64,000 nt of DNA, taken from Syntrophobacterales bacterium Delta_02. Its GTDB lineage: Bacteria; Desulfobacterota; Syntrophorhabdia; Syntrophorhabdales; Syntrophorhabdaceae. The notes beneath the pieces were generated by a model. That model saw only the letters and a list, made by a program, of their open reading frames with translations. It was not told the origin of the DNA and searched no databases. This document shows, piece by piece, positions 4,740-59,434 of this stretch (position 1 is the first letter of the stretch; the number at the start of each line of letters is the position of its first letter). The translations under genes were made by a program, and so were the position numbers. The stretch is from positions 1-64,000 of the forward strand of contig LVAA01000019.1 in assembly GCA_001603955.1 (NCBI GenBank). Direction: 5' to 3'.

Positions 4740-5220
4740 GGGTGATGGGTAACAGGTTATGGGTTATGGGAAAGGCTGGAAGAAAGATGCCCCATCACCC
4801 ATAACCCACATCTGTCCAGCACAGATCCGCGGCAACGGACATGCCGACTCTCCGGAGCATCCCCGGGGGAGGAGAATGACCAATGACCAAATTCCAATAA
4901 CCAGACAAACAGACAATAACCAAAACAATGATACAGGCAGCCCGTTCCGTTTGTTCAATTGGTTATTCTCTTTTTCATTGGTCATTGGAATTTGTTCAAT
5001 TGGTCATTATCTCTTTCACTGGTCATTATCCCCCATTTTGCCTGACGGCACGGGAGAAGAGATCGACCTGGTCTGGAATGGAAGATCTACCTGTCCTGGA
5101 CCATTGTTGTTCTATAAGGAGCGCATTCCGGGAAAATCGGAACCTTTACAGGGAAAGACGGGATACAGGTTTCCGATTCCACGGTTTTTTCCTATAACCC
5201 ATCACCCATAACCTGTCACC
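4740..5220. repeat. Composite iterated-heptamer hairpin element
   Basis: It begins on the base after the stop codon of the radical SAM gene. The left end repeats words close to GGTTATG/GGTGATG (4741-4770) and pairs with CCCATCACC/CCCATAACCC at 4791-4807. A second copy of the complementary words (CCCATCACCCATAACC) lies at the far right end, 5195-5220, so the outer arms also pair over about 33 positions with roughly 7 mismatches. Nested inside, at 4875-5030, is a second element of AATGACC-like heptamers with a complementary right arm made of GGTCATT words. The region contains no convincing gene. It separates the 3' ends of two convergent genes, so it could act as a bidirectional terminator, but that is inference. 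Confidence 0.8.
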
Positions 5221-5233
5221 TAATTACCCGCCT

Positions 5234-5716
5234 CTAGGCGAGATACTTATGCAGCTTCTGGTAGCTCACGAAGTCGCCATCTACAAAGTCCGCCCCGAGC
5301 TCCTTCGTCGCTTCCTCGCCTTCAGCGATCCTCTTTATGGTGCAGCGCATCTTCACCGGGGTCTTCTCGTTTGGTATGGTGAAGATCGTGTCGAACTCGC
5401 CCTCGCTGACCGCATCATAGTCGTGGGGAATGGATATCTTCAGCCCCCCCAGGGAGACGTCTATGACGATGCCCGTCTGCAGCGTCGATTCCTTCGCATC
5501 CCGCTTATAGACAAAGGCCGGAAGCGACACCTCCTTGCGGGCGTACCGCCTGCGCTCCTTTCTGGAGCCCTTCAACTCGACCTTGTCCTTGACCTGCGAG
5601 TGGAGCATATTCTCTATAATGGATGAAAGCGACCGTCTTTCGACCTCCGCTATCTTTTCCAGTGTTTGTTTCAACTCCTCGTTGGTCCGAAAACATATAG
5701 TTACATCTTTCTTCAT
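5234..5716 (-). CDS. Ribbon-helix-helix plus PilZ domain protein
   Basis: A 160-residue protein. Residues 1-45 (VTICFRTNEELKQTLEKIAE, then RRSLSSIIENML) look like a CopG/Arc-type ribbon-helix-helix DNA-binding domain. Residues about 55-155 form a PilZ domain with the two c-di-GMP contact motifs RRYARK (RxxxR) and DVSLGG (D/NxSxxG). The combination suggests a c-di-GMP-responsive DNA-binding protein, although stand-alone PilZ proteins with short helical N-termini are common and DNA binding is inferred. The start has a GGGGGAAG ribosome binding site. It is monocistronic and convergent with the radical SAM gene across the repeat element. Confidence 0.75.
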   Translation of the reverse strand: MKKDVTICFRTNEELKQTLEKIAEVERRSLSSIIENMLHSQVKDKVELKGSRKERRRYARKEVSLPAFVYKRDAKESTLQTGIVIDVSLGGLKISIPHDYDAVSEGEFDTIFTIPNEKTPVKMRCTIKRIAEGEEATKELGADFVDGDFVSYQKLHKYLA

Positions 5717-6188
5717 TAGCTTCCCCCTTACACTGCGCTATCCGGCCGATGCCCTCGTCGGCACTTTGCGATACATGAGTATAACATAATATGGAACTAT
5801 TGAAAAGCTCAACTTGACCCGGGAGAAGCGCGTAATGCCTTATCTGGCGCGGAACCGGCAACGTGCGTGGCGGGCGAGGGGCGGGGCGCCGTTCTCGTTG
5901 CCGCACTCAGGGTTGCTCGCAGGGAGCGAGTTCCCCGGAGCGGCCTGGGGACCATCTGCAGCCACTTGCGAAAGGATTACTTATCGGCACCGATTGTGGT
6001 AGAATAATGATCATATCGAGGCCGGACACGTATCAAGACGGGGGCACACTTTGTCGGAGGCGTTCTACATCCCGGCCCGGGGGACCTGAAAGGGGTGGAG
6101 ATCGATCGAGTTTCTCCCGTGCCAGCGCGGCTTTCTGCCGGGCCGGCAGGGTTCGGGGGACGGCGGCCGATCCCGGAAGGGAGGACGA
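5717..6188. other. Intergenic region without a supported gene
   Basis: 472 bases between the divergent PilZ and galE genes. Open frames here are short, rich in Arg/Gly/Ser and match no family I know. A TAGAAT at 5999-6004 could be a -10 for galE, but no -35 lies at the right distance. An imperfect GC-rich inverted repeat (GCTCGC/GCGAG) lies near 5930. Confidence 0.5.
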
Positions 6189-7172
6189 ATGAAGATCTTT
6201 GTAACGGGTGGGGCCGGCTATATTGGCAGCCACGTCGTAAAGCTTCTCGGGGAGCAGGGACACAACGTTCTTGTCTACGACAATCTTTCCACGGGCCACG
6301 AATGGGCCGTGCTGTCGGGGCACCTCGTCAAGGGTGACCTTTCCGACAGGCAGCTTCTCAGGGACACGCTGAAGGAATATGCTCCCGACGCGGCCGTGCA
6401 CTTCGCCGCATCGATCCAGGTGGAAGAATCCGTCCGGGAGCCCCTCAAGTACTACCGCAACAACGTCGTCAACAGCATCAACCTCCTCGAGGTGCTTACC
6501 GAGCTCAAGGTCAGGTATTTCATCTATTCGTCGACGGCAGCCACCTACGGGGCGCCGCGGACAAGTCCCGTCGATGAGAGTACGCCCCTCGCTCCAATAA
6601 ACCCTTACGGGATGACAAAGGTCATGGTGGAAGCCGTCCTTCGGGACATAGCCGCGAAGGGGGACCTGAGCTATATCGCGCTGCGGTATTTCAACGTCGC
6701 CGGCGCCGACCGGCAGGCGCGGATAGGCCAGGCCTACCGTGAGGCGACGCACCTCATCACGCGCGCCCTCAAGACGGCGCGGGGGGAACAGGAGAAGCTT
6801 CTCGTGTTCGGCACGGACTATCCCACGGCGGACGGTACTTGCGTGAGGGACTACATCCACGTTGAGGACCTTGCGGCTGCACACCTTCTGGCCCTCATGT
6901 ATCTGAGGGAAAAGGGTGTCTCGGACGTGATGAACTGTGGCTATGGACATGGATTCTCGGTCCTTGACGTGATCCGCACGGCCAAGGCGGTGACGAAGGT
7001 AGATTTTCCCGTGGAATTCGCGGGGCGCAGACCCGGCGACCCGCCGGAGCTTGTCGCGGACAGCTCCAAGCTCAAGAGGCTGACGGGGTGGTCCCCGCTC
7101 TGCGACGATCTCGGTTTCATCATCGAGACCGCATGGGAATGGGAAAACAAGAGGGCGGCGAGGGAGGATTAA
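6189..7172 (+). CDS. galE: UDP-glucose 4-epimerase
   Basis: A 327-residue short-chain dehydrogenase/reductase. The NAD-binding motif GGAGYIGSH starts at residue 7, STAATYG carries the catalytic Ser/Thr, and YGMTK holds the catalytic Tyr-x-x-x-Lys. The ending matches GalE (GRRPGDPPELVADSSK). It interconverts UDP-glucose and UDP-galactose, supplying precursors for cell-surface polysaccharide and connecting with galT at the left edge of the window. A GGGAGG ribosome binding site precedes the ATG. The next gene starts 10 bases downstream, so they are probably co-transcribed. Confidence 0.95.
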   Translation: MKIFVTGGAGYIGSHVVKLLGEQGHNVLVYDNLSTGHEWAVLSGHLVKGDLSDRQLLRDTLKEYAPDAAVHFAASIQVEESVREPLKYYRNNVVNSINLLEVLTELKVRYFIYSSTAATYGAPRTSPVDESTPLAPINPYGMTKVMVEAVLRDIAAKGDLSYIALRYFNVAGADRQARIGQAYREATHLITRALKTARGEQEKLLVFGTDYPTADGTCVRDYIHVEDLAAAHLLALMYLREKGVSDVMNCGYGHGFSVLDVIRTAKAVTKVDFPVEFAGRRPGDPPELVADSSKLKRLTGWSPLCDDLGFIIETAWEWENKRAARED

Positions 7173-59029: not shown

Positions 59030-59298
59030 TCCCGCGAAAGGTTGCGATCCCGTCCCCGGCATGTCCTTAACCGACAACCCTCGTAACGCTGTGCTGCATG
59101 TCGAGAGTAGAGGTGCTCCGTCCCATAAGATGTGCACCATTGTAACGGAAATGGGGGTGCCGTTAAAGGAAAAAGATCGCGCAAGACGGGTAAGTCAGAC
59201 CCGCCTCGCGCATGCCGCGCTCCTCGCACGGGGGTAGTCGGCGCAAGCGACCCTGATTCGACGGAAGACCACACCACTCGACAAACCGAAAAGGGAAA
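59030..59298. other. Intergenic stretch without a supported gene
   Basis: About 270 bases upstream of the GT9 gene. No gene, terminator or clear promoter was recognised; it is followed by a long hairpin and a nonamer array. Confidence 0.45.
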
Positions 59299-59340
59299 TC
59301 CCCTTATTTCACTTTGACTGCACAAAGCAAAATAAGGGGA
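59299..59340. repeat. Long hairpin, AAATAAGGGGA type
   Basis: TCCCCTTATTT (59299-59309) pairs perfectly over 11 bp with AAATAAGGGGA (59330-59340). Inside, CTTTG/CAAAG (59312-59316 and 59323-59327) adds a 5-bp stem with a six-base loop. The AAATAAGGGGA motif recalls REP-type repeats of delta-proteobacterial genomes. There is no T-run, so it is not a standard terminator. Confidence 0.8.
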
Positions 59341-59395
59341 CCCATAATCTACTTTACTCTCCCGCCACTCACCCTGAAATCATTTAGCCTTTAGT

Positions 59396-59434
59396 CGGCT
59401 CAAACAGTTCAAACGGCTCAAGCGGTTCAAGCCG
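59396..59434. repeat. Nonamer array, four CGGCTCAAA-like units
   Basis: Four tandem 9-base units (CGGCTCAAA, CAGTTCAAA, CGGCTCAAG, CGGTTCAAG) end in CCG. The outer bases CGGCT/AGCCG and flanking GCCT/AGGC can pair. It ends 5 bases before the stop of the PfkB-family gene, on that gene's downstream side. Confidence 0.85.

What the first reader, a model, noticed from the sequence alone, without database searches (positions are those of the whole stretch)
4740..59434. A class of intergenic hairpins built from locally iterated 7- or 9-base words
At least eleven intergenic spots (4740-5220, 7757-7777, 12668-12811, 14634-14763, 15464-15491, 16095-16115, 26565-26708, 44740-44774, 55616-55713, 58038-58163, 59396-59434) hold tandem copies of a short word. 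The word differs at most sites (GGTTATG, TTTCAGG, AATGACC, AGTTTTA, TCTCAGG, YTCAAGG, GTCCTATAG, GTCGCAA, CTTAACA, CGGCTCAAA), but the period is 7 or 9. Most start 0-10 bases after a stop codon. Several continue with a matching array of the complementary word, forming hairpins with perfect end arms of 11 to 21 bp. The shared feature is form, not sequence, which suggests a copying process that makes and spreads word arrays. Heptanucleotide repeats (STRR) are known in filamentous cyanobacteria; I know of no described equivalent with changing words and hairpin arms.
Basis: seen in the sequence. Interest (0 to 1): 0.78.

Follow-up and report, generated by a model that had tools for sequence, protein, structure and literature searches.

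The report
Hairpins of swapped short DNA words
In this uncultured bacterium many gaps between genes hold arrays, often paired into hairpins, of one short word repeated every 7 or 9 letters; related species often keep an array or hairpin at the same spot, at some spots with different words, likely because DNA copying slips and copies one arm from the other, and the hairpins would help to mark where transcripts end.

Summary
In 749 kb of this genome (19%), period-7 arrays number 38 in intergenic DNA against 0.0 per shuffle and period-9 arrays 26 against 0.2; periods 2-6, 10 and 13 give none, nor do 100 kb of E. coli at periods 2-15. Strong inverted repeats occur in 32 of 46 array gaps, 18 of 198 other gaps and 0 of 46 shuffles. 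Most words fall, by eye, into about six families with fixed polarity (word first, complement second: 36 of 36 pairs in three families). In 28 comparisons of 21 array gaps with relatives, 13 keep the words, 4 change them within the family and 7 change family or period (by eye). In 4 of 14 array comparisons tested, each arm pairs only with its own partner. AATGACC is a separate dispersed repeat, nested in other hairpins; its exact 21-mer occurs in 17 MAGs of about six phyla. I favour slippage plus arm-to-arm template switching, with hairpins kept as terminator-like 3' ends (0.45); dispersal of whole hairpin cassettes is the main rival (0.33). Paired arrays of 7-8-base words were reported in Geobacter in 2009, so this is a new variant, not a new kind.

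The parts
4740..4807 (+). GGTNATG word array (left arm) plus first piece of its right arm (CCCATCACCCATAACCC), directly after the stop at 4739
   Evidence: orthologous plain 113-base stretch with hairpin in PtaB.Bin047 and UBA1386
4808..5193 (+). about 390-base MITE-like element with AATGACC hairpin core, inserted into the right arm of the GGTNATG hairpin (ends approximate)
   Evidence: no such insert in the two relatives in which the gap was found; copies with ends CACATCTGTCCA / TGGACAGCAGTG elsewhere; the right end of this copy is diverged
5194..5221 (+). remaining right arm, ATAACCC/ATCACCC words
4875..5027 (+). AATGACC / GGTCATT word hairpin inside the inserted element
   Evidence: 42 matches of its left part in the genome, both arms of a copy counted apart
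7755..7777 (+). GTTTCAG x3 single array, 5 bases after the stop at 7749
   Evidence: in UBA1386 the same gap holds GTCCTATNG words
12668..12811 (+). AATGACC hairpin, 35-base arms 89% complementary
   Evidence: decayed forms at the same site in PtaB.Bin047 and UBA1386
14634..14763 (+). GTTTTAA hairpin in a divergent gap
   Evidence: UBA1386 same words, PtaB.Bin047 GTTTCAG words
15463..15492 (+). GTCTCAG x4 single array, 6 bases after the stop at 15457
   Evidence: mixed GTYTYAN words in both relatives
16095..16115 (+). YTCAAGG words, single array after the stop at 16088
   Evidence: related words at the same stop in PtaB.Bin047
26565..26708 (.). GTCCTATNG 9-base word hairpin, 64-base arms 86% complementary, ending at the stop of the minus-strand gene
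   Evidence: present in PtaB.Bin047, absent in PtaB.Bin184
44740..44774 (+). GTCGCAA/GTCTCAT words, single array after the stop at 44730
   Evidence: other GTYNYAR words in both relatives
44854..44893 (.). canonical intrinsic terminator downstream of the array
   Evidence: 18-pair stem with T-rich arm and tail
55616..55713 (+). GTTTTAA/CTTAACA hairpin with 16 perfect end pairs, directly after the stop at 55615
   Evidence: Bin184 and UBA1386 (partly N) same words, Bin047 GTTTCAG words
58038..58163 (+). AATGACC-family element with an imperfect right arm
   Evidence: 86% over 49 bases; not seen in the printed gap of three relatives, whose right anchors aligned only 34-82 bases inward
59396..59434 (.). 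CGGCTCAAA / CGGTTCAAG 9-base words, ending next to the stop of the minus-strand ORF 59439-60512
   Evidence: similar words in UBA1386

Best explanation
These are intergenic arrays of 7-, 8- or 9-base words, often paired into hairpins and often kept at the same gaps between genes in related species while at some sites the words change, likely because replication slippage iterates a word and template switching copies one arm onto the other, and they are predicted to serve as two-way terminator-like 3' ends. Shown: the period bias, the inverted pairing, the fixed polarity of the words, shared site-specific words in both arms, and changed or swapped words at a minority of orthologous sites. Inferred: the copying mechanism (slippage gives the iteration, a snap-back or strand switch at the hairpin gives matching arms), the role at transcript ends (A-rich side before and T-rich side after the stem; in about four of ten stems a foot like AAAGAC(G/C)G ... 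C(G/C)GTCTTT), and that now and then a whole hairpin is replaced by another. The AATGACC hairpin is a separate mobile-like repeat, in several copies found inside these hairpins.
For: Period: p7 38 vs 0.00, p9 26 vs 0.20, none at 2-6, 10, 13; 0 at periods 2-15 in 100 kb of E. coli. Pairing: 32 of 46 array gaps vs 18 of 198 other gaps vs 0 of 46 shuffles. Arm-to-arm identity of words within a site: 0.841 vs 0.767 between sites, 0 of 5000 permutations reach it (19 sites). Swaps: of 14 array comparisons, in 4 (C193:14500/Bin047, C193:77665/UBA1386, C220:8013/UBA1386, C224:38623/UBA1386) native arm scores are 13-25.5 and both cross-species scores 5.5-8. Local iteration differs by lineage at one site: CCTGAAA x5 in this genome, CCTGCGA x5 plus CCTGAGA x3 in Bin047, CCCTTGAA/CCCTTAAA in UBA1386 (C193:80640). 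3'-end role: outside 33 word stems the ten bases are A 38% on the left and T 37% on the right vs 23% in intergenic DNA; convergent gaps hold arrays more often than divergent ones (16 of 64 vs 6 of 66, Fisher p 0.019). Template switching creating and repairing hairpin stems is published (PMC8794818, abstract and start of the introduction); a slippage bias to heptanucleotides is mentioned in PMC4679880's introduction (passage).
Against: No sign of RNA-level upkeep: in tandem gaps G.U-type mismatches on the transcript strand are 21 vs 35 on the other. Word stems of the two window parts scanned (3000-17000, 44000-60000) are not found by the terminator scan, whose loops are capped at 8, and at 44740 a canonical terminator follows the array. 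Gaps with any flanking stop do not hold arrays significantly more often than divergent ones (45 of 309 vs 6 of 66, p 0.32). Chimera test is mixed: of 14 array comparisons about six cross-pair as well as native and four are intermediate; cross-pairing is also lost in 2 of 9 comparisons without arrays, one of them an AATGACC element. At swapped sites the loop also differs, which arm-only rewriting does not predict. Slippage and switching alone do not explain why many sites share word families and one polarity. Array gaps are not clearly faster evolving (identity 0.68 vs 0.75, p 0.08, 26 vs 75 comparisons; length change larger, p 0.011). The recurring foot is seen in only 12 (left) and 14 (right) of 33 stems by string match.
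Confidence: 0.45

Rival explanations
1. The hairpins are mobile-like cassettes: whole hairpins (foot, words, loop) are copied into 3' gaps and replace older ones, and loops then drift beyond recognition.
For: Of three distant sites, C112 shares loop sequence with C155:10734 and with C239:40023 (0 of 300 shuffles each; the direct C155-C239 loop test failed, 131 of 300), and the C155-C112 similarity stops at the AAAGAC...GTCT foot. At C220:8013 this genome and PtaB.Bin184 share loop and one arm (88% over query 26-121; the other arm is not intact in Bin184) while PtaB.Bin047 and UBA1386 share another hairpin (85% over 157 of 167), so one whole swap fits. Foot, inner A- and T-rich borders and polarity are common to the GTYNYAR and CCGCTTGAR families (by eye).
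Against: Only 6 of 52 array gaps share non-word sequence with another gap in the 749-kb sample, and none of the GCTTGAR paralogues tested shares its loop (the one loop match is the orthologue). No REP-type transposase (PF01797) in this genome. No target-site duplication could be read.
Confidence: 0.33
2. The words are binding sites of a protein (IHF/HU-like, or an RNA-binding protein), and selection on sites, not a copying bias, iterates them.
For: Fixed polarity (36 of 36 pairs in three families; 52 of 52 stop-adjacent arrays of four families in coding sense). The Geobacter authors proposed IHF/HU for similar paired arrays (PMC2700814, passages).
Against: Words and periods change between relatives of 77-93% DNA identity at some of the same sites and between genomes of the phylum; a single recognition protein would not follow that. 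The 7-base step does not match the helical repeat (recalled).
Confidence: 0.12
3. Ordinary intrinsic terminators plus chance tandem repeats, joined by the eye of the reader.
For: Some stems have a foot and T-rich tail; a canonical terminator sits at 44854-44893.
Against: Shuffles give 0.0 period-7 arrays against 38 and no strong inverted repeats.
Confidence: 0.03

Closest known systems
Geobacter metallireducens 'predicted global regulator binding sites' classes 1-3 (BMC Microbiol 2009, PMC2700814; passages seen)
   Same: Multicopy arrays of 7-8-base words (GTTGCTYN x4, TCTCCGTS x3, MTYCTGA x5), 'mostly found in pairs', for classes 1 and 2 on opposite strands at variable distance; insertion sequences near class 1; former Deltaproteobacteria.
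   Different: Other words; there each class has one word, read as a possible IHF/HU site. Word swapping at orthologous sites, placement after stops and fixed polarity are not in the passages I saw.
Heptanucleotide direct repeats of cyanobacteria and Beggiatoaceae (STRR, recalled; TAACTGA, PMC4679880, passages seen)
   Same: Tandem 7-base words, intergenic, patchy across phyla.
   Different: One fixed word, mostly upstream of start codons in BOGUAY, inverted pairs almost absent (1 of 170 sets).
REP/BIME with RAYT transposases
   Same: Dispersed intergenic hairpins, often beyond stop codons (recalled).
   Different: No Y1_Tnp gene in this genome; word-iterated arms; no GTAG/GGAG foot noticed (foot motif recalled, not counted).
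Template-switch-made RNA hairpins (PNAS 2022, PMC8794818; abstract and start of the introduction seen)
   Same: A DNA copying route that creates and repairs both arms of a stem at once.
   Different: Described for RNA genes; iterated-word arms are not mentioned in what I saw.

Membership tests
Geobacter-type paired word arrays | several tandem 7-8-base words at a site | tested here: met
Geobacter-type paired word arrays | sites mostly in pairs on opposite strands | tested here: met
   32 of 46 array gaps carry a strong inverted repeat; 5 of the 38 stems taken forward are other hairpins
Geobacter-type paired word arrays | shared word sequence with the Geobacter classes | not tested
   consensus words compared by eye only
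REP/BIME with RAYT | REP-associated Y1 transposase in the genome | tested here: not met
   PF01797: 0 in this genome; 2, 1 and 2 in three relatives. Their five fetched loci (1.9-3.3 kb) hold no array of the six families; two hold an ATGTGAAG period-8 repeat
Intrinsic terminator | stem followed by a T run at a transcript end | tested here: inconclusive
   T 37% after 33 word stems but the scan misses the window stems; no RNA data
MITE (AATGACC element of Syntrophorhabdus) | terminal inverted repeats | tested here: met
   CACATCTGTCCA / TGGACAGCAGTG at several copies, by eye
MITE (AATGACC element of Syntrophorhabdus) | target-site duplication and a matching transposase | tested here: inconclusive
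   insertions inside repeated CCCATAACC words, so duplications cannot be told from words; transposase not sought
Reverse-transcriptase-made repeats | a reverse transcriptase in the genome | tested here: not met
   PF00078: 0 of 4 genomes, control rings in 3 of 14

The most novel reading that the evidence does not exclude
A hairpin lineage that inherits form but not sequence: at a fixed gap the word, and even its period (7, 8 or 9), is rewritten in both arms at once, so that each genome speaks its own dialect of words, spread through several phyla.
Probability: 0.3. Interest if true: 0.8.

Novelty: new variant of a known kind. Interest (0 to 1): 0.62.

Why it matters
Tandem repeats and hairpins are usually compared by sequence, so a class defined by period and pairing would be missed by repeat libraries. 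If both arms are rewritten together in nature, it would be a natural record of slippage and template switching in bacteria, and would make the question of how long stems arise and stay paired directly testable in strain series. It may also supply a terminator-like type that short-loop terminator scans overlook, and a 21-base repeat shared by MAGs of about six phyla whose carrier is unknown.

Tried and rejected
Rfam: no match in the window at gathering score. REP/RAYT: no transposase in this genome. Reverse transcriptase making words: none in four genomes. Viral, plasmid or phage carrier of AATGACC: 0 exact 21-mer in viral contigs; no distant match in plasmids or phages. RNA-level upkeep through G.U pairs: not seen. 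Free-energy z-scores of whole gaps with a simple Markov shuffle ran for 16 of 52 gaps before the script failed (z from -5.9 to +0.6) and were replaced by inverted-repeat scores. Array gaps as globally hypervariable: not significant for identity. Loop homology as proof of copying: found for one trio only, and there not for all pairs. Literature: the listings of searches (titles and starts of abstracts; one returned nothing) show no description of word swapping; search 25, for six of the word strings themselves, found one unrelated paper. These cover open-licence PMC papers only.
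Full report
What was checked. The window is contig C193 (1-64000) of a 4.03-Mb MAG; close relatives in the named collection are Syntrophorhabdus sp. PtaB.Bin047, PtaB.Bin184 and UBA1386 (77-93% DNA identity over syntenic matches). All eleven spots hold iterated words. 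Five have paired arms in the inverted-repeat list, a sixth (58038) by eye; five are single arrays. Eight of eleven have an edge within 10 bases of a stop codon.

Is it more than chance? I took 749 kb of the genome (19%) as stretches; they were chosen mostly because they or their contigs hold AATGACC matches. With a lag test (14 of 16 positions equal), 394 intergenic pieces give 38 arrays at period 7, 3 at 8, 26 at 9 and 22 at 14, against 0.00, 0.05, 0.20 and 0.10 per shuffle; periods 2-6, 10 and 13 give none, 11, 12 and 15 one each. Coding DNA, 86% of the bases, gives 2 at period 7 and 3 at period 9. Two 50-kb E. coli stretches give none at periods 2-15; stretches of Bin047 and UBA1386 show the same peaks (p7 30 and 9, p9 11 and 16). 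Arrays lie in 52 of 394 gaps: 16 of 64 convergent, 29 of 245 tandem, 6 of 66 divergent, 1 of 19 at contig or stretch ends. Convergent against divergent is significant (p 0.019); any gap with a stop against divergent is not (45 of 309 vs 6 of 66, p 0.32).

Word families. Most arrays belong, by eye, to GTYNYAR (GTTTCAG, GTTTTAA, GTCTCAG, GTCGCAA), GGTNATG, AATGACC (period 7), GTCCTATNG and CCGCTTGAR (period 9), and GGTTCAAG (period 8). Three GTYNYAR words in a row give 337 (overlapping) matches on both strands in the whole genome, the reversed control 0; 34 of 148 genomes of the phylum, own included, have at least one. In many other genomes of the phylum the reversed pattern also matches (for instance 32 plus 44 in G051), so there it is no neutral control but another word. 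In 20 stretches fetched around such matches from ten genomes, 18 show arrays in the lag test, with other words. Polarity is fixed: in paired gaps the word stands first and its complement second in 19 of 19 GTYNYAR, 6 of 6 GGTNATG and 11 of 11 AATGACC gaps; 1 of 1 CCGCTTGAR agrees; GTCCTATNG is the other way round, 3 of 3. Arrays within 20 bases of a stop read in coding sense in 27 of 27, 11 of 11, 9 of 9 and 5 of 5 cases (GTYNYAR, GGTNATG, AATGACC, CCGCTTGAR), antisense in the one GTCCTATNG case.

Hairpins. 32 of 46 array gaps (60-420 bases) have an inverted repeat scoring 14 or more, against 18 of 198 other gaps and 0 of 46 shuffles; by eye 12 of those 18 hold AATGACC or other word elements that the array test missed. 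Of 38 stems taken forward, five are other hairpins, some canonical terminators. Outside the 33 word stems, ten bases on the left are 38% A and on the right 37% T, against 23%. A foot like AAAGAC(G/C)G ... C(G/C)GTCTTT is found by string match on the left of 12 and the right of 14 of the 33, in several families.

What relatives show. For 21 array gaps with orthologues there are 28 comparisons. By eye: same words 13, words changed within the family 4, family or period changed 7, partial 2, absent 2. Examples: 14634 and 55616 are GTTTTAA here and GTTTCAG in Bin047; 7757 is GTTTCAG here and GTCCTATNG in UBA1386; C220:8013 is CCGCTTGAR here and GTTTCAG in UBA1386 and Bin047 between the same flanks; 26565 is absent in Bin184. 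Fourteen array comparisons could be tested by pairing the left arm of one species with the right arm of the other: in four (three family changes, one word change) both crosses score 5.5-8 against 13-25.5 native; about six cross-pair as well as native; four are intermediate. Of nine comparisons in gaps without detected arrays, two also lose cross-pairing, one of them an AATGACC element. Within this genome the two arms of a GTYNYAR site resemble each other more than arms of other sites (0.841 vs 0.767; 0 of 5000 permutations). Loops are barely alignable at many sites, including swapped ones.

AATGACC is a different thing. It gives 42 matches in the genome, arms counted apart, its copies share non-word sequence (cluster of 19 gaps), and in Syntrophorhabdus it is the core of an about 390-base element with ends CACATCTGTCCA / TGGACAGCAGTG; by eye 6 of 14 distinct left ends have GGTNATG-type words within 60 bases upstream. 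At 4740 the two relatives in which the gap was found have the uninterrupted hairpin. The exact 21-mer AATGACCAATGACCAAATTCC occurs in 92 stretches from 17 MAGs whose titles name Planctomycetia/Planctomycetales/Planctomycetaceae, Deltaproteobacteria and Syntrophorhabdus, Methylomirabilota, Omnitrophota, Patescibacteria groups and (Gamma)proteobacteria, and patchily among relatives (a form degenerate at two letters: 11 of 60 genomes; 7 of 12 in the genus, own included). In the Planctomycetia MAG 49 copies were read; 20 have CAC(A/G)GAG upstream, 19 the complement downstream, 12 both (either motif occurs in 192 of 4000 random 130-base windows). In loci of other phyla, non-ORF DNA also shows arrays at periods 7-9; those loci were picked by a period-7 element, so only periods 8 and 9 are free of that choice.

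How it likely works. Slippage explains local iteration and a 7-9 step; template switching between arms explains matching arms and joint change, as proposed for RNA genes (PMC8794818, abstract and start of the introduction). It does not by itself explain shared families, polarity and whole swaps, for which some dispersal of hairpins is needed: C112 shares loop sequence with C155 and with C239, with the C155-C112 border at the foot. The role at transcript ends is inferred from position, foot and T-rich side; the terminator scan does not see the window stems, a G.U test gave no support for RNA-level upkeep (21 vs 35), and excess near stops is modest in the sample.

Prior art. G. metallireducens carries arrays of 7-8-base words, mostly in pairs, read as possible IHF/HU sites (PMC2700814, passages). 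TAACTGA repeats (PMC4679880, passages) are almost never inverted pairs and mostly precede start codons. I therefore call this a new variant of a known kind.

Noticed in passing
window 8000-8290: Between the genes ending at 7749 and 8307 lies a stretch with an 18-base inverted repeat (CGACGGAGGCCGGGATCC ... GGATCCCGACCTCCGTCG, 8007-8069) that is well conserved in UBA1386; no Rfam match at gathering score. A candidate structured RNA.
   Followed up: no
L145, L143, L023, L021, window 4808-5193: About 390-base element with ends CACATCTGTCCA / TGGACAGCAGTG that sits in several copies next to or inside CCCATAACCC word hairpins: a repeat found in other repeats.
   Followed up: partly
L006-L095 (Planctomycetia MAG JAIOQB): AATGACC palindromes, some nested in hairpins of CAC(A/G)GAG words of period 8; left and right arms choose their heptads (AATCTCC, AATAACC, AAATCCC) partly independently.
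   Followed up: partly
L027, L031, L033, L034, L080 (Methylomirabilota MAG): AATGACC hairpin nested inside an outer inverted repeat containing ATTATTC(A/G)CGAA, apparently copied as one composite.
   Followed up: no
   Followed up: no
C169:5627 and C169:13531 of the own genome: Two intergenic stretches 94% identical over 218 bases, not word arrays.
   Followed up: no
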